A stretch of 64,000 bases of DNA from Haliotis asinina (taxonomy: Eukaryota; Mollusca; Gastropoda; Lepetellida; Haliotidae), in the NCBI RefSeq assembly GCF_037392515.1, contig NC_090288.1, forward strand, positions 1 to 64,000, read 5' to 3'. The position numbers and the translations under genes are program-made. Below are positions 1-62,490 of this stretch, in pieces. Every line of letters starts with the position of its first letter. The stretch's first letter is position 1. Under the pieces are notes generated by a model. It was not told the DNA's origin. It saw only the letters and a list, made by a program, of their open reading frames with translations, and did no database searches.

Positions 1-3000
1 CTAACCCTAACCCTAACCCTAACCCTAACCCTAACCCTAACCTAACCCTAACCCTAACCTAACCCTAACCCTAACCCTAACCCTAACCCTAACCCTAACC
101 CTAACCCTAACCCTAACCCTAACCCTAACCCTAACCCTAACCCTAACCCTAACCCTAACCCTAACCCTAACCCTAACCCTAACCCTAACCCTAACCCTAA
201 CCCTAACCCTAACCCTAACCTAACCCTAACCCTAACCCTAACCCTAACCCTAACCCTAACCCTAACCCTAACCCTAACCCTAACCCTAACCCTAACCCTA
301 ACCCTAACCCTAACCCTAACCCTAACCCTAACCCTAACCCTAACCCTAACCCTAACCCTAACCCTAACCCTAACCCTAACCCTAACCCTAACCCTAACCC
401 TAACCCTAACCCTAACCCTAACCCTAACCCTAACCCTAACCCTAACCCTAACCCTAACCCTAACCCTAACCCTAACCCTAACCCTAACCCTAACCCTAAC
501 CCTAACCCTAACCCTAACCCTAACCCTAACCCTAACCCTAACCCTAACCCTAACCCTAACCCTAACCCTAACCCTAACCCTAACCCTAACCCTAACCCTA
601 ACCCTAACCCTAACCCTAACCCTAACCCTAACCCTAACCCTAACCCTAACCCTAACCCTAACCCTAACCCTAACCCTAACCCTAACCCTAACCCTAACCC
701 TAACCCTAACCCTAACCCTAACCCTAACCCTAACCCTAACCCTAACCCTAACCCTAACCCTAACCCTAACCCTAACCCTAACCCTAACCCTAACCCTAAC
801 CCTAACCCTAACCCTAACCCTAACCCTAACCCTAACCCTAACCCTAACCCTAACCCTAACCCTAACCCTAACCCTAACCCTAACCCTAACCCTAACCCTA
901 ACCCTAACCCTAACCCTAACCCTAACCCTAACCCTAACCCTAACCCTAACCCTAACCCTAACCCTAACCCTAACCCTAACCCTAACCCTAACCCTAACCC
1001 TAACCCTAACCCTAACCCTAACCCTAACCCTAACCCTAACCCTAACCCTAACCCTAACCCTAACCCTAACCCTAACCCTAACCCTAACCCTAACCCTAAC
1101 CCTAACCCTAACCCTAACCCTAACCCTAACCCTAACCCTAACCCTAACCCTAACCCTAACCCTAACCCTAACCCTAACCCTAACCCTAACCCTAACCCTA
1201 ACCCTAACCCTAACCCTAACCCTAACCCTAACCCTAACCCTAACCCTAACCCTAACCCTAACCCTAACCCTAACCCTAACCCTAACCCTAACCCTAACCC
1301 TAACCCTAACCCTAACCCTAACCCTAACCCTAACCCTAACCCTAACCCTAACCCTAACCCTAACCCTAACCCTAACCCTAACCCTAACCCTAACCCTAAC
1401 CCTAACCCTAACCCTAACCCTAACCCTAACCCTAACCCTAACCCTAACCCTAACCCTAACCCTAACCCTAACCCTAACCCTAACCCTAACCCTAACCCTA
1501 ACCCTAACCCTAACCCTAACCCTAACCCTAACCCTAACCCTAACCCTAACCCTAACCCTAACCCTAACCCTAACCCTAACCCTAACCCTAACCCTAACCC
1601 TAACCCTAACCCTAACCCTAACCCTAACCCTAACCCTAACCCTAACCCTAACCCTAACCCTAACCCTAACCCTAACCCTAACCCTAACCCTAACCCTAAC
1701 CCTAACCCTAACCCTAACCCTAACCCTAACCCTAACCCTAACCCTAACCCTAACCCTAACCCTAACCCTAACCCTAACCCTAACCCTAACCCTAACCCTA
1801 ACCCTAACCCTAACCCTAACCCTAACCCTAACCCTAACCCTAACCCTAACCCTAACCCTAACCCTAACCCTAACCCTAACCCTAACCCTAACCCTAACCC
1901 TAACCCTAACCCTAACCCTAACCCTAACCCTAACCCTAACCCTAACCCTAACCCTAACCCTAACCCTAACCCTAACCCTAACCCTAACCCTAACCCTAAC
2001 CCTAACCCTAACCCTAACCCTAACCCTAACCCTAACCCTAACCCTAACCCTAACCCTAACCCTAACCCTAACCCTAACCCTAACCCTAACCCTAACCCTA
2101 ACCCTAACCCTAACCCTAACCCTAACCCTAACCCTAACCCTAACCCTAACCCTAACCCTAACCCTAACCCTAACCCTAACCCTAACCCTAACCCTAACCC
2201 TAACCCTAACCCTAACCCTAACCCTAACCCTAACCCTAACCCTAACCCTAACCCTAACCCTAACCCTAACCCTAACCCTAACCCTAACCCTAACCCTAAC
2301 CCTAACCCTAACCCTAACCCTAACCCTAACCCTAACCCTAACCCTAACCCTAACCCTAACCCTAACCCTAACCCTAACCCTAACCCTAACCCTAACCCTA
2401 ACCCTAACCCTAACCCTAACCCTAACCCTAACCCTAACCCTAACCCTAACCCTAACCCTAACCCTAACCCTAACCCTAACCCTAACCCTAACCCTAACCC
2501 TAACCCTAACCCTAACCCTAACCCTAACCCTAACCCTAACCCTAACCCTAACCCTAACCCTAACCCTAACCCTAACCCTAACCCTAACCCTAACCCTAAC
2601 CCTAACCCTAACCCTAACCCTAACCCTAACCCTAACCCTAACCCTAACCCTAACCCTAACCCTAACCCTAACCCTAACCCTAACCCTAACCCTAACCCTA
2701 ACCCTAACCCTAACCCTAACCCTAACCCTAACCCTAACCCTAACCCTAACCCTAACCCTAACCCTAACCCTAACCCTAACCCTAACCCTAACCCTAACCC
2801 TAACCCTAACCCTAACCCTAACCCTAACCCTAACCCTAACCCTAACCCTAACCCTAACCCTAACCCTAACCCTAACCCTAACCCTAACCCTAACCCTAAC
2901 CCTAACCCTAACCCTAACCCTAACCCTAACCCTAACCCTAACCCTAACCCTAACCCTAACCCTAACCCTAACCCTAACCCTAACCCTAACCCTAACCCTA

Positions 3001-6000
3001 ACCCTAACCCTAACCCTAACCCTAACCCTAACCCTAACCCTAACCCTAACCCTAACCCTAACCCTAACCCTAACCCTAACCCTAACCCTAACCCTAACCC
3101 TAACCCTAACCCTAACCCTAACCCTAACCCTAACCCTAACCCTAACCCTAACCCTAACCCTAACCCTAACCCTAACCCTAACCCTAACCCTAACCCTAAC
3201 CCTAACCCTAACCCTAACCCTAACCCTAACCCTAACCCTAACCCTAACCCTAACCCTAACCCTAACCCTAACCCTAACCCTAACCCTAACCCTAACCCTA
3301 ACCCTAACCCTAACCCTAACCCTAACCCTAACCCTAACCCTAACCCTAACCCTAACCCTAACCCTAACCCTAACCCTAACCCTAACCCTAACCCTAACCC
3401 TAACCCTAACCCTAACCCTAACCCTAACCCTAACCCTAACCCTAACCCTAACCCTAACCCTAACCCTAACCCTAACCCTAACCCTAACCCTAACCCTAAC
3501 CCTAACCCTAACCCTAACCCTAACCCTAACCCTAACCCTAACCCTAACCCTAACCCTAACCCTAACCCTAACCCTAACCCTAACCCTAACCCTAACCCTA
3601 ACCCTAACCCTAACCCTAACCCTAACCCTAACCCTAACCCTAACCCTAACCCTAACCCTAACCCTAACCCTAACCCTAACCCTAACCCTAACCCTAACCC
3701 TAACCCTAACCCTAACCCTAACCCTAACCCTAACCCTAACCCTAACCCTAACCCTAACCCTAACCCTAACCCTAACCCTAACCCTAACCCTAACCCTAAC
3801 CCTAACCCTAACCCTAACCCTAACCCTAACCCTAACCCTAACCCTAACCCTAACCCTAACCCTAACCCTAACCCTAACCCTAACCCTAACCCTAACCCTA
3901 ACCCTAACCCTAACCCTAACCCTAACCCTAACCCTAACCCTAACCCTAACCCTAACCCTAACCCTAACCCTAACCCTAACCCTAACCCTAACCCTAACCC
4001 TAACCCTAACCCTAACCCTAACCCTAACCCTAACCCTAACCCTAACCCTAACCCTAACCCTAACCCTAACCCTAACCCTAACCCTAACCCTAACCCTAAC
4101 CCTAACCCTAACCCTAACCCTAACCCTAACCCTAACCCTAACCCTAACCCTAACCCTAACCCTAACCCTAACCCTAACCCTAACCCTAACCCTAACCCTA
4201 ACCCTAACCCTAACCCTAACCCTAACCCTAACCCTAACCCTAACCCTAACCCTAACCCTAACCCTAACCCTAACCCTAACCCTAACCCTAACCCTAACCC
4301 TAACCCTAACCCTAACCCTAACCCTAACCCTAACCCTAACCCTAACCCTAACCCTAACCCTAACCCTAACCCTAACCCTAACCCTAACCCTAACCCTAAC
4401 CCTAACCCTAACCCTAACCCTAACCCTAACCCTAACCCTAACCCTAACCCTAACCCTAACCCTAACCCTAACCCTAACCCTAACCCTAACCCTAACCCTA
4501 ACCCTAACCCTAACCCTAACCCTAACCCTAACCCTAACCCTAACCCTAACCCTAACCCTAACCCTAACCCTAACCCTAACCCTAACCCTAACCCTAACCC
4601 TAACCCTAACCCTAACCCTAACCCTAACCCTAACCCTAACCCTAACCCTAACCCTAACCCTAACCCTAACCCTAACCCTAACCCTAACCCTAACCCTAAC
4701 CCTAACCCTAACCCTAACCCTAACCCTAACCCTAACCCTAACCCTAACCCTAACCCTAACCCTAACCCTAACCCTAACCCTAACCCTAACCCTAACCCTA
4801 ACCCTAACCCTAACCCTAACCCTAACCCTAACCCTAACCCTAACCCTAACCCTAACCCTAACCCTAACCCTAACCCTAACCCTAACCCTAACCCTAACCC
4901 TAACCCTAACCCTAACCCTAACCCTAACCCTAACCCTAACCCTAACCCTAACCCTAACCCTAACCCTAACCCTAACCCTAACCCTAACCCTAACCCTAAC
5001 CCTAACCCTAACCCTAACCCTAACCCTAACCCTAACCCTAACCCTAACCCTAACCCTAACCCTAACCCTAACCCTAACCCTAACCCTAACCCTAACCCTA
5101 ACCCTAACCCTAACCCTAACCCTAACCCTAACCCTAACCCTAACCCTAACCCTAACCCTAACCCTAACCCTAACCCTAACCCTAACCCTAACCCTAACCC
5201 TAACCCTAACCCTAACCCTAACCCTAACCCTAACCCTAACCCTAACCCTAACCCTAACCCTAACCCTAACCCTAACCCTAACCCTAACCCTAACCCTAAC
5301 CCTAACCCTAACCCTAACCCTAACCCTAACCCTAACCCTAACCCTAACCCTAACCCTAACCCTAACCCTAACCCTAACCCTAACCCTAACCCTAACCCTA
5401 ACCCTAACCCTAACCCTAACCCTAACCCTAACCCTAACCCTAACCCTAACCCTAACCCTAACCCTAACCCTAACCCTAACCCTAACCCTAACCCTAACCC
5501 TAACCCTAACCCTAACCCTAACCCTAACCCTAACCCTAACCCTAACCCTAACCCTAACCCTAACCCTAACCCTAACCCTAACCCTAACCCTAACCCTAAC
5601 CCTAACCCTAACCCTAACCCTAACCCTAACCCTAACCCTAACCCTAACCCTAACCCTAACCCTAACCCTAACCCTAACCCTAACCCTAACCCTAACCCTA
5701 ACCCTAACCCTAACCCTAACCCTAACCCTAACCCTAACCCTAACCCTAACCCTAACCCTAACCCTAACCCTAACCCTAACCCTAACCCTAACCCTAACCC
5801 TAACCCTAACCCTAACCCTAACCCTAACCCTAACCCTAACCCTAACCCTAACCCTAACCCTAACCCTAACCCTAACCCTAACCCTAACCCTAACCCTAAC
5901 CCTAACCCTAACCCTAACCCTAACCCTAACCCTAACCCTAACCCTAACCCTAACCCTAACCCTAACCCTAACCCTAACCCTAACCCTAACCCTAACCCTA

Positions 6001-6300
6001 ACCCTAACCCTAACCCTAACCCTAACCCTAACCCTAACCCTAACCCTAACCCTAACCCTAACCCTAACCCTAACCCTAACCCTAACCCTAACCCTAACCC
6101 TAACCCTAACCCTAACCCTAACCCTAACCCTAACCCTAACCCTAACCCTAACCCTAACCCTAACCCTAACCCTAACCCTAACCCTAACCCTAACCCTAAC
6201 CCTAACCCTAACCCTAACCCTAACCCTAACCCTAACCCTAACCCTAACCCTAACCCTAACCCTAACCCTAACCCTAACCCTAACCCTAACCCTAACCCCT
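1..6300. repeat. Telomere, (CCCTAA)n
   Basis: About 1,050 tandem CCCTAA hexamers run from the first base, so the G-rich strand (TTAGGG) points off the left end and this is a true chromosome terminus. From about position 230 to 6294 the tract appears unbroken. Five-base units (CCTAA) occur only near positions 41, 56 and 217, close to the outer end. The TTAGGG type is shared by molluscs, vertebrates and many other animals; it argues against most insects (TTAGG) and nematodes (TTAGGC). Confidence 0.98.
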
Positions 6301-7083
6301 AACCCTAACCCCTAACCCTAACCCTAACCCTAACCTAACCCTAACCCTAACCCTAACCCGTACCCTAACCCTAACCCGTACCCGTACCCGTACCCGTACC
6401 CGTACCCGTACCCGTACCCGTACCCTAACCCTAACCCGTACCCTAACCCGTACCCTAACCCGTACCCTAACCCGTACCCTAACCCTAACCCTAACCCTAA
6501 CCCTAACCCGTACCCTAACCCGTACCCTAACCCTAACCCGTACCCTAACCCGTACCCTAACCCGTACCCTAACCCGTACCCTAACCCTAACCCGTACCCT
6601 AACCCGTACCCTAACCCGTACCCTAACCCGTACCCGTACCCGTACCCGTACCCGTACCCGTACCCGTACCCGTACCCGTACCCGTACCCGTACCCGTACC
6701 CGTACCCGTACCCGTACCCGTACCCGTACCCGTACCCGTACCCTAACCTAACCCGAACCCGAACCCGTACCCGAACCCGAACCCGTACCCGTACCCGTAC
6801 CCGTACACGTACACGTACACGTACACGTACCCGTACCCGTACCCGTACCCGTACCCGTACACGTACACGTACACGTACCCGTACCCGTACCCGTACCCGT
6901 ACACGTACACGTACACGTACACGTACACGTACACGTACACGTACACGTACCCGTAACCGTACCAGTACCCGTACCCGTCCCCGTGCCCGTGCCCGTGCCC
7001 GTGCACGTGCACGTACACGTACACGTGACCTCACCCTTATCCTCAACCGTACCCTCACCCGTATCGCCTACCCGTACCCGTAG
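6301..7083. repeat. Telomere-proximal variant repeats (CCCGTA, ACACGT)
   Basis: Canonical CCCTAA gives way to CCCGTA hexamers, first mixed (6357-6628), then nearly pure CCCGTA (6629-6741), then CCCGAA, and finally alternating blocks of CCCGTA and ACACGT with some CCCGTG/CACGTG (6806-7026). The hexamer period is kept while sequence drifts away from the telomere. Both strands are open for long stretches and would encode simple dipeptide repeats such as Val-Arg or Gly-Tyr; these are not genes. Confidence 0.93.
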
Positions 7084-13430: not shown

Positions 13431-14437
13431 AATCCGTATTCTCAGTTTAGGGTCAGTGACACATATTGGCGATACCTTCCTGAATGGTTACAACCATGAT
13501 TCAAGGGTGCTTTATTGATATCTGTAGATGTTTGTAATAAGATAAAGGTGTGAGTGCTTGACAGTGTATTATTTCTATGGCAAATGTACACCTAAGCTGT
13601 GTCCCTACTGGAATGTTTACATAATAAGGAAGTGAGGTGGTTCACTTTGCCAAAATATGATTTGTGTCAGAGGTGATCAGATTTACAATCGCCGATTGTG
13701 ATTAAGGTTTTGAGGCACACATAACATTCTTTGTCTGTGAGCACATTGGCCTTTTCAGTCAACCTCAGTTGTCAGCTCTGGAGCTCAATAGTGCTAGATA
13801 GAACAAGTTTACTTTAACCTTATTTCAAATCGTCAAAATTCTGAACAGTGAACTAAAACTAAAATGTGTCCAGATTAATATTTTCACGCCTGGATAAACC
13901 ATGCAATTCCATACATAAATCATCACCATATTTATTATATATGGTGTAACATTAGTGATTAGCAGGTGCTCTCTGAGGGCGTGCATCGGTACTTTTATGA
14001 AAGTGGACACTGTTGCTTACAGGTCCCAACTGGAAGGATAAATACTCATATTAACAACTGCAATCCATTATCGGGTAATGTCAGTTTTAATTTGGTTCCT
14101 TCACCTACATTATGTGATGTTATTGTATACAGTTTCTGAGAGTGCTGGTTGTCGTTGTATAATGTAAACATGTAGATATTTTAAATTATAAGAGCAACCT
14201 ATGCAACATATTTTGTCATTACATTCAAGAAAAAGTCATCACCCTGCCAGCGTCGTGCTGTAAGAACTTTTCACAATCAGATGTGCTGCTTTCATCATGA
14301 AGGAACTCTCTGACGCTAATAGCAAGTATTTACCTATAACATTGGTCCTGATGTATCAGTGAGACACATGTAGGCTATGAAATTATTTGATACATTCACA
14401 CCTAGTGATATCTGTGATACTGATTGGAAATATTCAC
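13431..14437. other. Intron 6, unique AT-rich sequence
   Basis: About 1 kb of AT-rich intron following (in gene direction) the exon 6 donor. No exon, RNA gene or repeat that I can support. Confidence 0.45.
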
Positions 14438-14726
14438 CTGTCACCTTTATCCTGAGGTATCTGTAGGCAATCAGCAGGGCAATCACGAGGAGGATTAGAA
14501 ACAACGCAAAAATGACAACGATGATTATGTCAGCCACCCTGAAAGTCGTGTCTGGACCACTTTGTGATTGGGGTACGAGTGTTGGCCCAGCAGTTGTCGG
14601 CCGCATACAAGCTGAACACAGACTTCCACTACACTTAGCACTGACGACTGTGGGATAACCCAGGTGGTCGTAGAACTTTATCTTGTCTTTTTCGAGGCGC
14701 AGCCCAGTCCCTCCGTAAGACCCGAC
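14438..14726 (-). CDS. Receptor exon 6: juxtamembrane and transmembrane segment
   Basis: The 289-nt exon starts in phase 0 after CTCACCAG and ends in phase 1 at ACAG/GTGAAT (donor at 14437). It encodes 96 residues. Residues 1-12 (VGSYGGTGLRLE) complete the last strand of Venus-flytrap module 2, and the fit with exon 5 (TYVE then VGSY) supports the junction. A C-x4-C-x2-C motif follows (residues 32-40), then a Thr/Pro/Ser-rich stalk, then about 24 strongly hydrophobic residues (about 65-88, ADIIIVVIFALFLILL and on) followed by YRYLRIK, a positive stop-transfer. This gives an extracellular N-terminus and a single membrane pass. The short Cys motif takes the place that the full nine-cysteine domain occupies in metabotropic glutamate receptors, but it is far smaller. 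Confidence 0.88.
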
Positions 14727-17104
14727 CTGGTGAGTATCAAACTTTGTTATCGCAATGTCAAATGTAACAAATGTGATTTTCCACACATTATTTCAAACAA
14801 ATTTACATACAGCTGACAACTATACTCACATTATATCACACAATCGACAGAGAGATGACCAGTATACTCACGTTATATCAAACAATCGACATACAGCTCA
14901 CCAGCATACTGACGTTATCTCACAAACAATCGACATACAGCTCACTAGTATACCCACGTTATATCACACAATCGACATGCAGCTGACCAATATACTCACG
15001 TTATATCACACAATCGACATACAGCTGACCAGTATACACAAATTATATCACACAATCGACATACAGCTCACCAGTATACACACATTATCTCACACAATCG
15101 ACATAGAGCTGACTAGTATACACACGTTATATCCCACAATCGACATAGGGCTGACCAGTATACTCACATTGTATCACACAATCGACAAAGAGCTGACCAG
15201 TATACTCACGTCATATCACACAATCGACATACAGCTCACCAGTATACACACATTATCTCACACAATCGACATACAACTGACCAGTATACTCACGTTATAT
15301 CACACAATCGACATACAGCTCACTAGTATACACACATTATCTCACACAATCGACATAGAGCTCACCTGTATACACACATTATATCACACAATCGACATAC
15401 AGCTCACTAGTATACACACATTATATCACACAATAGACATACAGCTCACTAGTATACTCACGTTATCTCACAAACAATCGACTTACAGCTGACCAGTATA
15501 CACACATTGTATCACACAATCGACATACAACTGACCAGATTACTCACGTTATATCACACAATCGACATACAGCTCACCAGTATACACACATTATATCACA
15601 CAATCGACATACAGCTGACCAGTATACTCACGTTATATCACACAATCGACATACAGCTGACCAGTATACACACATTATATCACACAATCGACATAGAGCT
15701 GACTAGTATACACACGTTATATCCCACAATCGACATAGGGCTGACCAGTATACTCACATTGAATCACACAATCGACATAGGGCTGACCAGTAAACTCACA
15801 TTGTATCACACAATCGACAAAGAGCTGACCAGTATACTCACGTTGTATCACACAATCGACATACAGCTCACCTGTATACACACATTATATCACACAATCG
15901 ACATACAGCTCACCAGTATACACACATTATATCACACAATCGACATACAGCTCACTAGTATACTCACGTTATCTCACAAACAATCGACTAACAGCTGACC
16001 AGTATACACACACTGTATCACACAATCGACATACAGCTGACCAGTATACTCACGTTATATCACACAAACGACATACAGCTCACCAGTATACTCACATTAT
16101 ATCACACAATCGACATAGAGCTGACCAGTATACTCACGTTATATCACACAACCGACATACAGCTGACCAGTATACTCACATTATATCACACAAACGACAT
16201 ACAGCTCACCAGTATACTCACATTATATCACACAATCGACATACAGCTCACTAGTATACAAACATTATATCACACAATAGACATAGAGCTCACTAGTATA
16301 CTCACGTTGTATCACACAATCCACATAGAGCTGACCAGTATACTCACGTTATATCACACAACCGACATACAGCTGACCAGTATACTCACATTATATCACA
16401 CAAACGACATACAGCTCACCAGCATACTCACATTATATCACACAATCGACATACAGCTCACTAGTATACACACATTATATCACACAATCGACATAGAGCT
16501 CACAAGTATACATACATTATATCACACAATAGACATAGAGCTGACCAGGATACTCACGTTATATCACACAATCGACATACAGCTCACCAGTATACACACA
16601 ATATCTCACACAATCGACATACAGCTGACCAGTATACTCACGTTATATCACACAATCGACATACAGCTGACCAGTATACACACATTATCTCACACAATCG
16701 ACATAGAGCTGACTATTATACACACGTTATATCCCACAATCGACATAGGGCTGACCAGTATACTCACATTGTATCACACAATCGACTTAGGGCTGACCAG
16801 TATAATCACATTGTATCACACAATCGACAAAGAGCTGACCAGTATACTCACGTTGTATCACACAATCGACATATAGCTCACCTGTATACACACATTATAT
16901 CACTCAATCGACATAGAGCTCACTAGTATACACACATTATATCACACAATCGACATACAGCTGACCAGTATACTCACGTCATATCACACAAACCGCATAC
17001 AGCTCACCAGTATACTCACATTATATCACACAAACGACATACAACTCACCAGTATACTCACATTATATCACACAATCGACATAGGGCTGACCAGTATAAT
17101 CACA

Positions 17105-20100
17105 TTGTATCACACAATCGACATACAGCTCACTAGTATACACACATTATATCACACAATCGACATAGAGCTCACTAGTATACATACATTATATCACACA
17201 ATAGACATAGAGCTGACCAGTATACTCACGTTATATCACACAATCGACATACAGCTCACCAGTATACTCACGTTATATCACACAATCGACATACAGCTGA
17301 CCAGTATACACACATTATCTCACACAATCGACATAGAGCTGACTATTATACACACGTTATATCCCACAATCGACATAGGGCTGACCAGTATACTCACATT
17401 GTATCACACAATCGACGTAGGGCTGACCAGTATAATCACATTGTATCACACAATCGACAAAGAGCTGACCAGTATACTCACGTTGTATCACACAATCGAC
17501 ATACAGCTCACCTGTATACACACATTATATCACTCAATCGACATAGAGCTCACTAGTATACACACATTATATCACACAATCGACATAAAGCTCACTAGTA
17601 TACTCACGTTTTCTCACAAACAATCGACTTACAGCTGACCAGTATACACACATTGTATCACACAATCGACATACAGCTGACCAGTATACTCACGTTATAT
17701 CACACAAACCACATACAGCTCACCAGTATACTCACATTATATCACACAAACGACATACAGCTCACCCGTATACTCACATTATATCACACAATCGACATAG
17801 GGCTGACCAGTATAATCACATTGTATCACACAATCGACATAGAGATAACCAGTATACACACATTATATCACACAATCGACATAGGGCTCACCAGTATACT
17901 CACATTATATCACACAATCGACATACAGCTGACCAGTATACTCACATTATATCACACAATCGACATAGGGCTGACCAGTATACTCACGTTATATCACACA
18001 ATCGACATAGAGCTGACCAGTATACTCACGTTATATCACACAATCGACATACAGCTGACCAGTATACTCACATTATATCACACAAACGACATACAGCTCA
18101 CCAGAATACTCACATTATATCACACAATCGACATGCAGCTCACTACTATACACACATTATATCACACAATCGACATAGAGCTCACTAGTATACACACATT
18201 ATATCACACAGCAGACATACAGCTGACCAGTATACTCACGTTATATCACACAATCGACATACAGCTGACCAGTATACACACATTATATCACACAAACGAC
18301 ATACAGCTCACCAGTATACTCACATTATAACACACAATCGACATAGAGCTGACCAGTATAATCACATTGTATCACACAATCGACATAGAGATAACCAGTA
18401 TACACACATTATATCACACAATCGACATAGGGCTCACCAGTATACTCACGCTGTATCACACAATCGACATACAGCTCACCAGTATACTCACATTATATCA
18501 CACAATCGACATACAGCTCACTAGTATACAAACATTGTATCACACAATCGACATAGAGCTCACTAGTATACACACATTGTATCACACAATCTACATAGAG
18601 CTCACTAGTATACTCACGTTGTCTCACAAACAATCGACATAGAGCTGACCAGTATACTCACGTTATATCACACAATCGACATACAGCTCACCAGTATACT
18701 CACATTGTATCACACAATCGACATGCAGCTCATTAGTATACACACATTACATCACACAATAGACATAGAGCTCACTAGTATACTTACGTTATATCACACA
18801 ATCGACATGGAGCTCACCAGTAAACACATGAAATCACACAATCGACATACAGCTGACCAGTATACTCACGTTATATCATACAATCGACATAGAGCTGACC
18901 AGTATACTCACGTTATATCACACAGTCGACATACAGCTCACCTGTATACACACATTATATCACTCAATCGACATAGAGCTCACTAGTATACACACATTAT
19001 ATCACACAATCGACATACAGCTGACCAGTATACTCACGTTATATCACACAAACCGCATACAGGTCACCAGTATACTCACATTATATCACACAAACGACAT
19101 ACAACTCACCAGTATACTCACATTATATCACACAATCGACATAGGGCTGACCAGTATAATCACATTGTATCACACAATCGACATAGAGATAACCAGTATA
19201 CACACATTATATCACACAATCGACATAGGCCTCACCAGTATACTCACGCTGTATCACACAATCGACATACAGCTCACCAGTATACTCACATTATATCACA
19301 CAATCGACATACAGCTCACTAGTATACACACATTATATCACACAATGGACATAGAGCTCACTAGTATACTCACGTTATCTCACAAACAATCGACATAGAG
19401 CTCACTAGTATACTCACGTTATATTGCACAATCGACATAGAGCTGACCAGTATACTCCCGTTATATCACACAATCGACATACAGCTCACCAGTATACTCA
19501 CATTGTATCACACAATCGACATGCAGCTCACTAGTATACACACATTATATCACACAATAGACATAGAGCTCACTAGTATACTTACGTTATATCACACAAT
19601 CGACATAGAGCTCACCAGTATACTCACGTTATATCACACAATCGACATACAGCTCACCAGTATATTCACATTGTATCACACAATCGACATGCAGCTCATT
19701 AGTATACACACATTACATCACACAATAGACATAGAGCTCACTAGTATACTTACGTTATATCACACAATCGACATAGAGCTCACCAGTAAACACATGAAAT
19801 CACACAATCGACATACAGCTGACCAGTATACTCACGTTATATCATACAATCGACATAGAGCTGACCAGTATACTCACGTTATATCACACAGTCGACATAC
19901 AGCTCACCTGTATACACACATTATATCACTCAATCGACATAGAGCTCACTAGTATACACACATTATATCACACAATCGACATACAGCTGACCAGTATACT
20001 CACGTTATATCACACAAACCGCATACAGGTCACCAGTATACTCACATTATATCACACAAACGACATACAACTCACCAGTATACTCACATTATATCACACA

Positions 20101-38340: not shown

Positions 38341-38508
38341 GTGAGTGAGAATGGTTTTACGTCGCTTTCAACAGTCGTCCATCAAAATCTCGTCGAGGGA
38401 GACCAGAATTGGACTTTACACATTGTATCCGTGTAGGAAATCGAATCCAGGTTCTCGGCGTAACGAACCAACGCTTCAACCACATGGCTACCCCCACCGC
38501 TCCCACAT
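38341..38508 (-). mobile_element. tRNA-derived SINE, gastropod type
   Basis: On the minus strand the element starts GGAGCGGTGGGGGTAGCC near 38508, continues through GTGGTTGAAGCG (box A-like) and CTGGATTCGATTTCC (box B-like), then a body containing GTGTAAAGTCC, and ends at 38341 in TCACTCAC. From memory this matches a SINE abundant in abalone and related gastropods, whose sequence ends in GTGAGTGAG on the other strand; I could not run a search. It lies in intron 5, about 145 bp past the exon 5 donor. The short open frame on the plus strand across it is not a gene. Confidence 0.65.
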
Positions 38509-38651
38509 GACTCTAACGGGTCTGGGCATTGAGACGGGAACCGTGTCAAACTCATTACCCACCCGTCCCGGGTATCCAGGTTACGCTCGCAGCTAGAAAA
38601 CAGCCTAAAACTGCAACATATTAAGGCATTGGGCTTCCTGACTTTATCTAC

Positions 38652-40145
38652 CTCAACATATGTCTGTCCACTGACTTCCGCTTGTACATTGTAGATGGTG
38701 AACCCAATCGCTCCATTCCCGTCCTTGTCAAACAACGGCTGCAGTTGTGACTGTGGATTTTTCACTTCTCGGATTGTCTCCCAAACTCTGGATCTGTATA
38801 GCGAATCATAGTAGAAACGACATGGAAACACGTCCCCGAAATCCCGACACAGGGTGGCCTTCACCTTGTTCACACCTATCCCCGCCGCATATGTAGCATA
38901 CTGCACGTGTTTTACGCGCTGGTTGTCGAGATGATTTTTCATATTGTCACTGGTAAGACTATGACTGTCTGAACACTCTCTTTCTTTGATGTTGTTGAAG
39001 CCACCACGAATGTTGCAACTGAACTGACTTTGCCAGAATTCCTTGAACCAAGGGTTTCGGCGGTTGTTCCCGGGGGTTTTAGACAGCAAAGATTGAGAGA
39101 AACCAGGGAAAGGAGGTTCCAGCATCTGTTGTATCTTCAGCGTGATTGCTCCCCTTGTCGCTCTCTGACCACTTTCCAGGATGTACTGTTTGTTTCCCCA
39201 GTCTTCGCTGGCAACGACAACAAACTTTCCGTATTGTTCTTGGTCGTTGACTGCTTTCATGAAGTCCTTGAAACGAGTGTCAATACCAAAGAACACAACA
39301 ACCTGGGCGTCCTCAATTAAGAGCTCCTCAAGCACGTCTAAAAGTTCACGATCAACCCCGTTACTTGAACTCTCACTGATATTCTTAGGGTGGGAGACGC
39401 ATATTCCTGCAGCGTGAGCGTGTTGCTGGAACGCCAACATTCCTTTTGTGCCATAGTTATTGCTGACGTACAGCAAACTGACATACTCCCAGCCCATCTC
39501 AATAATGATCTGTACCATGGCCTTAGCTTGTTCAACATCACTAGGAACTGTCCGCAGGAAGTTGGGGAAGTTGACCCTGTCGTCCAAATCGGGACTGGAG
39601 GCTGCATATGACAAGACTGGGATATTTAGTCCATTGAAGAATCTAGCTAGAGGAATAGTTGAGTCACTGGACAAGGAACCTATGACAGCCACCGTCTGGT
39701 TCAGTGGAACGAGATGCCCGAATCTCTGTGACGGTCCACCAATGGAGGAGAAGTACTCAGATATGATGCTGGTCAGCCTAACAGAACTGTAACAGTCATC
39801 AAAGGCAACTGCACCAAATTTGAGGCCTGTTGTTTTCCTCATCTCCTCAACAGAATAAAGGAACGCCTCCAGGGCAATTGTATCACTGGAGACACTCCGG
39901 AACTTATCACAGTTGAAGGGGTTATCTTGGTCGGAACTATGAATGGAGAATATCCCCACCAAATACACGTCTCCCTTCACAAACACCATAGGCATGGTCC
40001 CAAATTCCACACATTCTTTGCAGTATCCTTTGCATATTGATCTCGGCAGAGAGGAGCCGGACATAATTTTATCTCCGTCTTTCATTACAACAGATGTGAG
40101 GTTCAATTCCAAACCTCTGGAAGAATAGGTCCCGACGTTTACAAA
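38652..40145 (-). CDS. Receptor exon 5: Cys motif 1 and entire Venus-flytrap module 2
   Basis: A single 1,494-nt exon (498 codons), phase 0 at both ends: acceptor TGATTTCAG before 40145, donor GAG/GTAGAT at 38651. It begins FVNVGTYSSRGLELN, the last strand of module 1, then LPRSICKGYCKEC (C-x3-C-x2-C), and then a complete ligand-binding module: GDVYLVGIFSIH, FDDCYS, VIGSLSSDSTIPLARFF, VLSYAASSPDLDD, FLRTVPSDVEQAKAMVQI, MGWEYVSLLYVSNNYG, and GNGAIGFTIYNVQ near the end. These segments match metabotropic glutamate receptor-like modules in order. The serines in VIGSLSS and YAASSPDL sit where amino-acid-binding Ser/Thr residues lie in glutamate receptors, so an amino-acid-like ligand is possible but unproven. 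Module 2 is intron-free, unlike module 1. Confidence 0.92.
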
Positions 40146-40235
40146 CTGAAATCACAACCATGAAGATATTAGTACATTTATGTCACAACAATAGTGTGTA
40201 GTATAGAAATAGGACTGATATTATTATGCCACTGG
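40146..40235. other. Intron 4, acceptor-side sequence resembling the 25-bp unit
   Basis: Between the exon 5 acceptor and the first clear array units. Positions 40150-40176 (AATCACAACCATGAAG, then ATATTA) resemble the 25-bp unit of the neighbouring array (AATACCACTATGAAG, then CCTATATTA), as if degenerate units extend to the splice site. Confidence 0.45.
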
Positions 40236-53642: not shown

Positions 53643-54455
53643 CTCATTGCCTGCCGTGACGGCATTAACGTGATATAGCACAGTCTCGGGTCCTCGGAGG
53701 ATGTCCCCAGTTTCTTTCTTGAAGGAAAAGTGACGTCGCTGAGATACATACTCGGACGGGACAAAAGAGTCTGGCAAGACTGTGAAGTTGACATCTACCT
53801 TTTTCAAAAAATTCCCAAACCGATTTTCCCTGACTACCTCTACTACTGAGGCACACAAAGGCTCAGAGGTGCCTTGACAGAGATGAGAAATGGCATTCTT
53901 CAAAGCAACGGCATATGCGTAAGTAGCATCGACTGTGGCAGCCACATAGTCTGACTGGGTCGCAAATAAATCGCCGCTGTTTGCTTGGCGCCCGTACTCC
54001 CTGAACAGAGGTGTAGAATCTTTAATGTTGGACCAGAAAACGTTTAACTCGCTGAATTCAACAGGTGATGGCGACAGTGTTAGCGTCCCTAATGCCACTC
54101 TATCGTTGCCGTTAAAAATGTCATACACTCTTCCCACAGAATCTGACATCAGCCAGTAGAAACCTGTCATCTTGGACTCGGCATAGTACGTCATGATGTC
54201 CTTGGCCACATCTCGCAAGCCGAAGTACACAACAGCCAGATGCTTGTCTTCTGTTGCCTCCTTGACTTGCCGCAGCTCGGCAAACAGATCCGGCCTGTCC
54301 ACAGTATCGGACACCTCCACAGACTTAATGAAACAAACCCCATTCTTTCTTCCCTCCTCTTTCAATAAAGAAGCAGCCGACCGACCATAAATGTCGCTAC
54401 TGTGCACCAAAGCCACGTAAGTCCAGTCAAGCTTTTTGAGTATGTCCAGTATGGG
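53643..54455 (-). CDS. Receptor exon 4: C-terminal part of Venus-flytrap module 1
   Basis: The 813-nt exon (271 codons) is phase 0 at both ends: acceptor TTGTTGTCAG before 54455, donor GAG/GTAACA at 53642. It starts PILDILKKLDWTYVALVHSS followed by DIYGRSAASLL, matching the W-x-Y-V-(x)-Y/G block of class C receptor ligand-binding modules; then GVCFIKSVEV, a central hydrophobic strand (LAVVYFGLRDVAKDIM), FYWLMSDSVG, and VDATYAYAVALKNAI, the conserved helix found near the end of such modules. Two nearby cysteines (HLCQGTSEPLC) are typical. It ends HVNAVTAGNE and joins FVNVGTYS in exon 5. Its 3' end is the last unique sequence before the 31-bp array. Confidence 0.92.
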
Positions 54456-54714: not shown

Positions 54715-54895
54715 GACATAAACTGTGTCTGGTTAGGTATTGATCTGACATACACATCTACACTATCTGCTTGTGCTGTCCTTACTCTGATCTATACTAT
54801 CTGGTGTGTTGTCCTCACTCTGATCTACACTATCTGCTTGTGTTGTCCTCACTCTGATCTACACTATCTGCTTGTGTTGTCCTCACTGTGATCTA
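54715..54895. repeat. 36-bp minisatellite, left segment
   Basis: Four to five units, mostly 34 bp, of the repeat seen at 55715-56868 (CTGATCTACACTATCTGC, TTGTGTTGTCCTCA). It is the part of the intron 3 array left of the LINE fragment. Confidence 0.88.
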
Positions 54896-55007
54896 AATGT
54901 TGGCATGTCTACCCCTAAGAGTATGGTGTACGTTGAATGTGGGAGATTCCCTTTGTACATGATTTCTTACTCTCGCTGTTTGAAGTGGAAGGTGCAAAAT
55001 AATTAAT

Positions 55008-55705
55008 ATGCGACAACATCGTCTGCTCCAAAAAGTCTACAATATGATTGTTCATCTTGATAATATTGGTAAAAACACTTGGGCAACCCGTATTCGTAGT
55101 CTTTTGTTTAGATGCTGCTTTGGATTTGTCTAGTTATCCCAAACCCTGGGCGATGTCAATGCATTTATCAAACTTTTTCGTACCCTCGCTATCGATATCT
55201 TCAGTCAGGACCGGCATTCATCACTATATGAAAGTTCAAGATATGACTGTTATCGTGAGTTTAAATCTCTACATGAACCTGAGTCGTATCTGTACAACCT
55301 ACGTAATACAAACCTTCGTAATGCTTTCATACGCTTGAGACTTGGTCTAAATGAGTTAGGTATCAATCAAGGAAGACGTTCACCTATTATAGAATCACAA
55401 AGGCCCTGTCCATTCTGTAACACTGTTGAGAATGAATTTCACTTTTAATTTATTTGTCCTGTATATAATGATTTAAGGCAGATGTATTTCCCGTCATGGC
55501 TACGATCACACAAGAATGCTACAAAACTTTATTCAATACTTTCAAGTAAAGCATTCCTATTACAACATGAGACAGCTCTATTTCTTCACCATGCGCTCAT
55601 ATTGAAAAGAGATTCACTGTAACGTGTGTCATATGTTGTATATGTTTTACATACTATACATATATATTTTGTATATGGGCCACTGGCCTTCATACAATAA
55701 AGTGA
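55008..55705 (+). mobile_element. Decayed non-LTR retrotransposon (LINE), 3' end
   Basis: A frame beginning near 55008 encodes RLLQKVYNMIVHLD, NTWATRIRSLLFRCCFGFV, FKSLHEPESYLYNLRN, RLRLGLNELGINQGRR and then CPFCNTVENEFHF with FICPVYNDLRQMYFPSWLR. The C-x2-C-(x)-E-x2-H-(x)-C pattern is typical of the region after the reverse transcriptase domain of invertebrate LINEs. In-frame stops at 55131 (TAG) and 55446 (TAA) show it is dead; the natural end is TAA at 55620-55622. An AATAAA near 55697 and a GTGATTGATAATTGATA tail mark the 3' end. It splits the 36-bp array of intron 3, in the orientation opposite to the host gene. Confidence 0.8.
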
Positions 55706-55714
55706 TTGATAATT

Positions 55715-56868
55715 GATAACTGATCTATACTGTATCTGCTTGTGTTGTTTTCACTCTCATCTATACTGTAACTGCTGGTGATGTCATCGCTCTGATCTAC
55801 ACTGTATCTGCTTGTGTTGTCATCGCTCTGATCTACACTGTATCTGCTTCTGTTGTCCTCACTCTGATCCTCACTGTATCTGCTTGTGTTGTCATCACTC
55901 TGATCTACACTATCTGCTTGTGTTGTCCTCACTCTGATCTACACTGTATCTGCTTCTGTTGTCCTCAATCTGATCTACACTGTATCTGCTTCTGTTGTCC
56001 TCAATCTGATCTACACTGTATCTGAATGTGTTGTCATCGCTCTGATCTACACTGTATCTGCTTGTGTTGTCATCGCTCTGATCTACACTGTATCTGCTTC
56101 TGTTGTCCTCACTCTGATCTACACTGTATCTGCTTGTGTTGTCCTCACTCTGATCTACACTGTATCTGCTTGTGTTGTCATCGCTCTGATCTACACTGCA
56201 TTTGATTGTGTTGTCCTCACTCTGATCTACACTGTATCTGATTGTGTTGTCCTCACTTTGATCTACACTGTATCTGCTTGTGTTGTCCTCAATCTGATCT
56301 ACACTGTATCTGCTTGTGTTGTCATCGCTCTGATCTACACTGCATTTGATTGTGTTGTCCTCACTCTGATCTACACTGTATCTGATTGTGTTGTCATCGC
56401 TCTGATCTACACTGTATCTGCTTGTGTTGTCCTCACTCTGATCTACACTGTATCTGCTTGTGTTGTCATCGCTCTGATCTACACTGCATTTGATTGTGTT
56501 GTCCTCACTCTGATCTACACTGTATCTGATTGTGTTGTCATCGCTCTGATCTACACTGTATCTGCTTGTGTTGTCCTCACTCTGATCTACACTGTATCTG
56601 CTTCTGTTGTCCTCACTCTGATCTACACTGTATCTGCTTGTGTTGTCATCGCTCTGATCTACACTGCATTTGATTGTGTTGTCCTCACTCTGATCTACAC
56701 TGTATCTGATTGTGTTGTCCTCACTTTGATCTACACTGTATCTGCTTGTGTTGTCCTCACTCTGATCTACACTGTATCTGCTTCTGTTGTCCTCACTCTG
56801 ATCTACACTGTATCTGCTTGTGTTGTCATCGCTCTGATCTACACTATCTGCTTGTGTTGTCCTCACCT
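55715..56868. repeat. 36-bp minisatellite derived from the exon 3 splice donor
   Basis: About 32 copies of CTGATCTACACTGTATCTGC followed by TTGTGTTGTCCTCACT, period 36 bp. On the gene strand each unit contains ACAGTGTAGATCAGA next to GTGAGGACAACACA, closely matching the exon 3 end and donor at 56890-56925. Rare variants (GCATTTGATTG) recur at 144- and 180-bp spacing. Long open frames on both strands follow from the 12-codon period. Confidence 0.95.
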
Positions 56869-56902
56869 TGTTTTACGTGGTGTCAGGATGTGATGTACTC
56901 AC

Positions 56903-57158
56903 CCTGATCTGCACTGTGTCCGGTAGTGCTGTACGGTAGAAGTTGGTGTAGTTGAGAGTGAGATCAGCCGCTGTTGCCGACGGACTGATCATTGGTATTC
57001 CGGAAGCACTGAGAATTTTGGCTGCTGCCAGTGCCGTAACACTTCGAGAGGGTCCGATAATTCCTGCCATAATACAATACGATTTGGAAGCGAGATGGTA
57101 ATAAGCAGCGAGAGACACGGGACTTCTTAAGGCATCAGGTATTATTTCCTCCATCACA
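56903..57158 (-). CDS. Receptor exon 3: Venus-flytrap module 1, central part
   Basis: Encodes EEIIPDALRSPVSLAAYYHL, then MAGIIGPSRSVTALAAAKIL, IPMISPSATAADL, and FYRTALPDTVQIR. The I-I-G-P-S-(x)-S and S-A-T-A-A-D-L blocks match the ligand-binding core of glutamate-receptor-like modules. The donor is CAGG/GTGAGT at 56902, phase 0, joining PILDIL of exon 4. The 5' edge is uncertain: an in-frame TAA lies just upstream, and the likely acceptor CATAAAG before 57158 gives phase 2, while exon 2 ends in phase 1. A short missing exon, another start (GGAG before the Glu codon, phase 0) or an error could explain this. Confidence 0.8.
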
Positions 57159-58850: not shown

Positions 58851-58973
58851 CTAGGTGGATAGATGGATCGTCCTTGGTACAGTTGATAATACCCGAGAGC
58901 GATGGGCTGACAACATCCAGAGCGTTCTGGACCACATATAGTGGGTTCTGGCAGTCGTCGTAGAGCTTCACGT
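58851..58973 (-). CDS. Receptor exon 2: Venus-flytrap module 1, early part
   Basis: The 123-nt exon has a good acceptor (CACTTCCAG before 58973) and a donor CTAG/GTAAAT at 58850. The first two bases complete an Asp codon begun in exon 1, giving PGIRF-D-VKLYDDCQNPLYV. The block L-Y-D-D-C-Q is the usual strand after the P-G-I-R/K-(x)-G motif of class C-type modules, with its conserved cysteine. It continues VQNALDVVSPSLSGIINC and TKDDPSIHL and ends in phase 1. Exon 1/2 phase fits well; the exit phase does not match the exon 3 acceptor I favour. Confidence 0.85.
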
Positions 58974-62216: not shown

Positions 62217-62490
62217 CAAACCTGATTCCAGGAATAAATCCCTTGTTGAGTTTGTCGATGACCCAGCCGACTGCCACGTATGTCTGCAGAGCGTGTCGTG
62301 ATATGTCTCCACACATTCCATTCTGGCTCTCCCTCAGGCTGATGAAGAGGGATAGTCTCACCTGGGATATGTTGGATGTCCAGGACGGAGCTTGCACATA
62401 GCAGTAGTCCGCGCTGTATGTCAGCGACACCATGCAACACATCACCCCAGCGAACACACCCGACACACCTTCCAACATCATCCCTTTCAT
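62217..62490 (-). CDS. Receptor exon 1: signal peptide and start of Venus-flytrap module 1
   Basis: I chose ATG at 62490 because the residues that follow (MKGMMLEGVSGVFAGVMC, MVSLTYSADY) form a plausible signal peptide with cleavage near Ala-Asp. An upstream in-frame ATG at 62559 would add 23 mostly charged residues. The mature start continues FISLRESQNGMCG, HALQTYVAVGWVIDKLNKG and FIPGIRF, matching the usual opening of class C-type ligand-binding modules (a cysteine, then an A-(x)-(x)-W/I-D-x-L/I-N helix, then P-G-I-(x)-F/L). The donor is TTTG/GTAAGC at 62216, phase 1. This is the 5'-most coding exon I can find; non-coding first exons may lie further right. Confidence 0.82.

What the first reader, a model, noticed from the sequence alone, without database searches (positions are those of the whole stretch)
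55715..56925. Intron 3 minisatellite is an amplified copy of its own exon/splice donor
Seen directly: the end of exon 3 plus its donor (gene strand, ACAGTGCAGATCAGG/GTGAG) and the 36-bp repeat unit (ACAGTGTAGATCAGA/GTGAG) match at about 28 of 36 positions by hand, including donor bases and the downstream ACA-CACA. The next GTGAG, of the first array unit, lies exactly 36 bp past the true donor (56902 to 56866), so the real splice site is in register as unit zero. Most of the ~32 units therefore carry a potential GTGAGG donor. I infer that the array was seeded by tandem duplication of the splice junction. It could supply decoy or redundant donors to the spliceosome.
Basis: partly seen in the sequence, partly recalled or inferred. 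Interest (0 to 1): 0.85.

Follow-up and report, generated by a model that had tools for sequence, protein, structure and literature searches.

The report
Repeat array born from splice donor
A short repeat in a receptor gene's intron is a multiplied copy of that gene's own exon end and splice signal, and similar arrays start at the splice signals of several other genes in the same genome, so splice signals look like one of the places where such repeats are born.

Summary
Exon 3's end plus donor matches the 36-bp array consensus at 28 of 36 positions, ungapped, in register (0 of 20,000 shuffles). An older copy, P1, lies between them (25/36 to the exon copy). All 29 genome hits of the unit (up to 3 mismatches) are in this intron. 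The exon end is colinear with glutamate receptors and the intron is shared with six paralogs, so copying ran from exon to array. The claim that most units keep GTGAGG is wrong: 15 of 32 do, pairing with U1 far more weakly than the true donor.

The larger result is recurrence. A paralog has an unrelated 47-bp array on its own donor at the same intron. Of 13 donor-word arrays examined elsewhere, 4 contain copied exon sequence and 2 more start at an exon's donor. Donor-word arrays are not clearly more numerous than a reversed-word control. Human ABCA7 and IFI6 are precedents. Most likely: a tolerated tandem duplication across a donor, amplified in the intron, with small splicing effect. How common this is remains unmeasured.

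The parts
62217..62490 (-). Exon 1 of the host gene (signal peptide and start of ligand-binding domain)
   Evidence: open frame from ATG, GT donor; joins in frame with exons 2-4
58851..58973 (-). Exon 2
56903..57063 (-). Exon 3; its last 31 nt are the seed
   Evidence: colinear with mGluR4
56897..56905 (-). True splice donor AGG|GTGAGT
   Evidence: U1 duplex -11.5 kcal/mol
56898..56933 (-). P0, unit zero in block register: 31 nt of exon 3 + GTGAG
   Evidence: 28/36 to array consensus, 25/36 to P1
56862..56897 (-). P1, diverged first intronic duplicate with AAG|GTGAGG donor; a TAA stop in the exon frame precedes that donor
55720..56866 (-). 36-bp minisatellite, about 32 units (TRF bounds); 15 of 32 units keep GTGAG
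   Evidence: hits of the unit confined to this intron
54896..55719 (+). Insert splitting the array, probably the 3' fragment of a LINE-type element (identity by recalled motif only; bounds approximate)
   Evidence: ORFs; Pfam gave nothing significant, best E 0.093 and 0.13
54756..54895 (-). Second array of the same unit, 34-bp form, about 4 copies
53643..54455 (-). Exon 4; acceptor ...TTGTTGTCAG|CCCATA
   Evidence: ANF_receptor E 8.1e-18 for the ORF holding it

Best explanation
A local tandem duplication copied the last 31 nt of exon 3 plus the start of the donor into the intron. Because the 5'-most donor stayed intact and strongest, the copy was removed with the intron and was nearly neutral. 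Slippage or unequal exchange then amplified it within the intron (the unit order shows multi-unit duplications), the donor copies decayed, and an insertion later split the array. Shown: homology, register, the intermediate copy, confinement of the unit to this intron, ancestry of exon end and intron position. Inferred: the duplication and amplification mechanism, near-neutrality, and at most a minor leak of splicing to P1, which would give a premature stop. The same process appears to have happened independently in other genes of this genome.
For: 28/36 in register with shuffle controls; P0/P1 25/36 and P0/array 28/36; 29 of 29 genome hits of the unit in this intron...PDTVQIR|PILDILKK colinear with mGluR4; in the six other receptor loci whose match breaks at this junction the intron sits at the same codon and phase, five of them without such an array (positions read by eye); introns 1, 2 and 4 of the same gene hold arrays that do not resemble their donors (17, 17 and 16 of 30, inside the shuffle range); U1 pairing true donor -11.5, P1 -10.1, units -5.9 or weaker; donor-seeded array in the C1 paralog and beside NDUFS2-, acyl-CoA-dehydrogenase- and MnmG/MTO1-like exons.
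Against: No RNA data, so donor use is unknown. No second species was available, so the unduplicated ancestor was not seen. P1 differs from P0 at 11 of 36 positions; lost units between them cannot be excluded. In the C1 paralog the exon-derived part is short: the last 30 exon nt as a whole score 18, inside the shuffle range (max 21); only the last 20 nt match (up to 17 of 20). In that paralog the 9 donor columns are invariant while 17 of 38 others vary (P 0.017, uncorrected), which pure decay does not predict. Donor-word arrays are not clearly enriched genome-wide.
Confidence: 0.85

Rival explanations
1. The array is maintained as a functional splicing device: the tandem donors collect U1 and tune splicing of intron 3 or feed decay-prone transcripts.
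For: In 7 of 7 donor-seeded cases tested an in-frame stop precedes the next intact donor (chance about 0.013 with the donor hexamers fixed; post hoc, uncorrected). Donor columns are invariant in the C1 paralog. Exon 19 skipping rises with the length of the ABCA7 array (PMC5954066, passages).
Against: In the window array 17 of 32 unit donors lack GTGAG and the rest pair weakly. 5 of the 7 genes with this intron have no such array. In the 7-of-7 count the ACAD11-like case has its stop inside the donor itself (chance 1.0), and the MTO1-like case counts only because its next two copies have no intact donor. In ABCA7, use of the second unit's donor did not change with array length.
Confidence: 0.12
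2. Reverse direction: the array came first and the exon border moved into it, so the exon end is an exonised unit.
For: The similarity alone gives no direction.
Against: The exon end is colinear with mGluR4 without gaps, with D-T-x-Q shared; the intron sits at the same codon in the other six loci; P1 lies between exon and array and carries a stop.
Confidence: 0.02
3. Chance resemblance of a donor-like repeat to a donor.
For: Donor words are common in arrays; arrays with donor words are not clearly more numerous genome-wide than arrays with the reversed word.
Against: Shuffles, the 280-comparison control, and exon-only similarity outside the donor word (23 of 30, shuffle maximum 21).
Confidence: 0.01

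Closest known systems
Human ABCA7 intron 18 VNTR (PMC5954066; passages read)
   Same: 25-bp intronic array that starts at the exon's own donor; use of a donor one unit downstream retains 25 nt and gives a premature stop
   Different: As described there the array begins at the GT itself; here 31 nt of exon are in the unit (20 in the C1 paralog) and most unit donors have decayed; no expression data here
Human IFI6 (6-16) minisatellite (Turri et al. 1995; paper not held; known from its title in reference lists and one passage of PMC4526556)
   Same: Minisatellite that provides multiple splice donors; two downstream repeat units serve as donors
   Different: Different gene and unit; used donors are reported there and untested here
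Intron gain by tandem genomic duplication (PMC4974935; search listing and start of abstract only)
   Same: Tandem duplication connected with splice sites
   Different: Here the intron is old and shared by paralogs; no new intron was made

Membership tests
Donor-spanning intronic minisatellite (ABCA7/IFI6 type) | First repeat coincides with the exon's own donor | tested here: met
Donor-spanning intronic minisatellite (ABCA7/IFI6 type) | Later units carry donor sequence | tested here: met
   15 of 32 units keep GTGAG, and P1 does; the units pair weakly
Donor-spanning intronic minisatellite (ABCA7/IFI6 type) | Unit donors used in transcripts | not testable with these tools
   no RNA data
Donor-spanning intronic minisatellite (ABCA7/IFI6 type) | Copy number varies between individuals and affects splicing | not testable with these tools
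   one assembly only
Intron gain by tandem duplication | Intron is new at this position | tested here: not met
   same codon and phase in this gene and six other receptor loci
Class C receptor (mGluR-like) | ANF_receptor ligand-binding domain | tested here: met
   E 8.1e-18; mGluR4 E 4.3e-17
Class C receptor (mGluR-like) | Seven-helix membrane domain in the same gene | not tested
   exons after exon 4 were not traced through the large arrays

The most novel reading that the evidence does not exclude
In this animal, splice donors are a recurrent birthplace of minisatellites: a tandem duplication that spans a coding exon's donor survives because the copy is spliced out, and the intron then serves as a safe place for amplification. 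Arrays last longest when an in-frame stop lies before the next donor, so mis-splicing makes decay-prone RNA and not an altered protein. Acceptor-anchored arrays (one seen, upstream of the MTO1-like exon) would be the mirror case. If general, exon-derived arrays would be a distinct, datable class of minisatellite with a known seed.
Probability: 0.5. Interest if true: 0.75.

Novelty: new member of a known kind. Interest (0 to 1): 0.55.

Why it matters
The seed of most minisatellites is unknown. Here the seed still exists, is held in place by coding constraint, and can be aligned base by base with its array. Several apparently independent cases in one genome, two of them at the same intron of paralogous receptors, make the birth of minisatellites at splice sites testable by a simple genome-wide script, and give natural series of tandem donors for studying donor choice. 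Human ABCA7, where such an array is reported to raise Alzheimer's risk (PMC5954066), shows that the class can matter medically.

Tried and rejected
Rejected: chance; array-first direction; common ancestry of the window and C1 units (best local alignments reached by 518 and 135 of 1,000 shuffles for two unit variants); intron gain (position shared). Coding function of the open frames through the 36-bp array: 36 bp is 12 codons, both strands are open, and the exon frame meets TAA first; the one Pfam hit below 0.001 (E 1.6e-5) is under its curated cut-off.

Against the general reading: donor-word arrays are not clearly enriched. Places with three AGGTRAGT words: 2,434 against 1,864 for the reversed word; AGGTAAGT alone 606 against 675. 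These are overlapping places, not arrays. Grouped by eye over C1:3.5-64.2 Mb I count 13 donor-word and about 18 reversed-word arrays. The reversed word is no clean control, since GTGAGTGGA is itself donor-like: 1 of the 13 control edges read (L091) also begins at a putative exon/donor, where only 7 of the last 9 exon nt match. Those 13 are the first 14 control arrays less one near-identical inverted copy. A Pfam comparison of both sets of edges was prepared but not run. Of the 13 donor-word arrays, 7 showed no exon by eye upstream of the first listed place; for one of these (L081) the array's start was not reached. Of the 6 with an exon, 2 (RIM-BP-like, signal-peptide-like) have no significant exon-derived part (371 and 248 of 2,000 shuffles for the last 24 nt), and 2 are weaker at other lengths (MTO1-like 44 of 2,000 at 12 nt; membrane-helix gene 16 of 2,000 at 18 nt). 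One search tried to find other exons of the C1 gene, but its exon 1 and exon 4 queries were in a wrong frame; nothing from them is used.

Full report
What was checked. The host gene is on the minus strand. Its exons 1-4 join into 457 codons without a stop and encode the ligand-binding part of a metabotropic-glutamate-type receptor (ANF_receptor; mGluR4 E 4.3e-17).

The match. Exon 3 ends CAGATCAGG|GTGAGTAC at 56903/56902. Its last bases plus donor match the 36-bp array consensus at 28 of 36 positions without gaps and in exact register. None of 20,000 dinucleotide shuffles at fixed register (maximum 22) and none of 2,000 shuffles of the whole exon plus donor, scanned at every place and rotation (maximum 26), reach 28; the best 36-mer elsewhere in the window scores 21. 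Among 280 junction-array-strand comparisons in the window only donor 3 with the two arrays of its own intron stands out (25 and 23 of 30, next 19). The exon part alone also exceeds its shuffles (23 of 30 against a maximum of 21 in 200). Read in 36-bp blocks, P0 (56933-56898, 31 exon nt + GTGAG) is followed by P1 (56897-56862, 25/36 to P0, 23/36 to the consensus) and then by the array.

Direction. The exon end encodes ...PDTVQIR|PILDILKK and aligns without gaps to mGluR4 ...PSDTYQAQAMVDIVRA. A genome search with exons 3-4 listed 27 places (a lower bound): 2 are this gene, 19 span the junction in one frame, and 6 begin at it. In these 6 I read an intron at the same codon, phase 0, 11 codons after the same arginine (by eye). 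So exon end and intron are older than the array. The unit, with up to 3 mismatches, is found 29 times in the genome, each time in this intron (28 in the main array, 1 in the second). Introns 1, 2 and 4 of the same gene also hold arrays, but these do not resemble their donors (first 5 kb of intron 4 only).

What the array can do. 15 of 32 units keep GTGAG; 11 read GCGAT, 3 TTGAG, 3 other. Predicted pairing with the U1 5' end (U1 sequence recalled) is -11.5 kcal/mol for the true donor, -10.1 for P1, -5.9 for 13 units and -5.1 or weaker for the other 19 (12 of the 44 anchors listed there are false anchors at a second GAT word and are not counted).

A second case. The paralog on C1 (L063) has the same intron, and its array starts at its own donor: exon ...CACTCATGGAT|GTAAGTAG followed by 34 further units 47 or 48 bp apart. 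Unit zero matches the consensus at 40 of 47 positions, 20 of these positions being exon. Of the last 20 exon nt up to 17 match a unit (0 of 20,000 simple shuffles at fixed register); the last 30 exon nt as a whole score 18, inside the shuffle range, so the copied exon part is short. 32 of 34 downstream donor sites equal the true one. A 22-base core word with up to 2 mismatches has 35 genome hits, 34 of them in this array and one with 2 mismatches on C10. The 36-bp and 47-bp units are not related. Thus 2 of 7 genes with this intron have donor-seeded arrays of their own; 5 of 7 show none. In the C1 array 0 of 9 donor columns vary against 17 of 38 others (P 0.017, uncorrected; the units were found by a word that covers most donor columns, but their even spacing leaves no missed unit).

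Beyond receptors. A genome-wide scan for three AGGTRAGT words 22-52 bp apart listed its first places, which I grouped by eye into 13 arrays on C1:3.5-64.2 Mb. For all 13 I read 600 bp upstream of the first listed place; for one (L081) this did not reach the array's start. Six begin at the donor of an apparent exon. Exon identity: NDUFS2 (PDB E 4e-15; Pfam 1.7e-8), MnmG, the bacterial form of MTO1 (4e-16; Pfam 1.1e-18), RIM-binding protein 2 SH3 (1e-10; Pfam SH3 0.0074, under its cut-off), an acyl-CoA-dehydrogenase-family kinase-like domain (2.2e-13, ACAD11 itself 3e-6; Pfam APH 0.0015, under its cut-off). A membrane-helix exon and a signal-peptide exon are judged by eye only (no Pfam hit). Similarity of the last 24 exon nt alone to the array: NDUFS2 21/24 (0 of 2,000 shuffles), ACAD11-like 21/24 (0), membrane-helix gene 16/24 (0), MTO1-like 17/24 (3); not significant for RIM-BP (371) and the signal-peptide gene (248). 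So 4 of 13 carry copied exon sequence and 2 of 13 start at the donor only. Seven showed no exon. The MTO1-like exon also has an array on its other side that repeats the last 24 intron bases exactly at -46, -92 and -184.

Limits of that result. The 13 arrays are the first listed, not a random sample. The count of donor-word arrays is not clearly above the reversed-word control, and that control is itself partly donor-like. What supports recurrence is the case-by-case exon similarity, not enrichment. In 7 of 7 cases tested (window, C1 paralog, NDUFS2, ACAD11-like, RIM-BP, MTO1-like, membrane-helix gene; the signal-peptide gene was not tested) an in-frame stop precedes the next intact donor, chance about 0.013 with the donor hexamers fixed. 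This is post hoc and uncorrected; in the ACAD11-like case the stop lies in the donor itself, and in the MTO1-like case the stop comes after 14 codons while the unit is 13 codons long, so it counts only because the next copies have no intact donor.

Known relatives. Human ABCA7 intron 18 carries a 25-bp array whose first GT is the donor of exon 18; use of a donor one unit downstream retains 25 nt and gives a premature stop, independently of array length, while exon 19 skipping rises with array length (PMC5954066, passages). Human IFI6 uses two downstream repeat units as donors (PMC4526556, one passage; the 1995 paper is not held). I saw no paper that treats donor-seeded minisatellites as a general class in the listings of searches; these cover openly licensed papers only, and I opened passages of five papers.

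Verdict. The array is a real, amplified copy of its own exon/donor junction. The mechanism most likely is a tolerated tandem duplication across a donor followed by expansion in the intron. As a single locus it is a new member of a known, small kind; its apparent recurrence in unrelated genes of one genome is the part worth following.

Noticed in passing
L063:572-2196 (G000:C1, minus strand): Paralogous receptor with its own 47-bp, 35-unit array starting at its exon 3 donor; nearly all unit donors intact. The best locus for RNA tests.
   Followed up: yes
L078 (C1:11395382-11396082): NDUFS2-like exon whose last 24 nt (21 of 24 matching) plus donor GTGAGC are repeated every 44 bp downstream.
   Followed up: partly
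L082, L085, L086, L083, L080 (C1): Donor-word arrays that start at exons of ACAD11-, MTO1-, membrane-helix, RIM-BP- and signal-peptide-like genes.
   Followed up: partly
L085:62-353: Array upstream of the MTO1-like exon ends exactly at the acceptor and repeats the last 24 intron bases: an acceptor-anchored mirror case.
   Followed up: partly
L091 (C1:5021010-5021360): An array found with the reversed control word also starts at a putative exon/donor (GTGAGTGG); the exon-derived part is at most about 9 nt.
   Followed up: partly
54896-55719: Insert that splits the minisatellite; plus-strand frames look like the end of a LINE reverse transcriptase (recalled motif, no significant Pfam hit) with a short repeated 3' tail.
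   Followed up: partly
1-7082: Telomere repeat array of 6.6 kb followed by variant repeats; the receptor genes lie within 65 kb of the contig end.
   Followed up: no
14784-37535: 42-bp array of about 540 copies; the same TRF sub-row recurs at 18047, 22551 and 27055, i.e. every 4,504 bp, which suggests a large duplicated higher-order unit.
   Followed up: no
38382-40151: Second receptor ligand-binding ORF, uninterrupted (589 aa, ANF_receptor E 3.4e-41); an ORF with one apparent membrane helix (by eye) follows at 14334-14792 beyond the big array.
   Followed up: no
55904-56893: The 36-bp array is open for over 300 codons on both strands because 36 bp is 12 codons; a trap for gene finders.
   Followed up: yes
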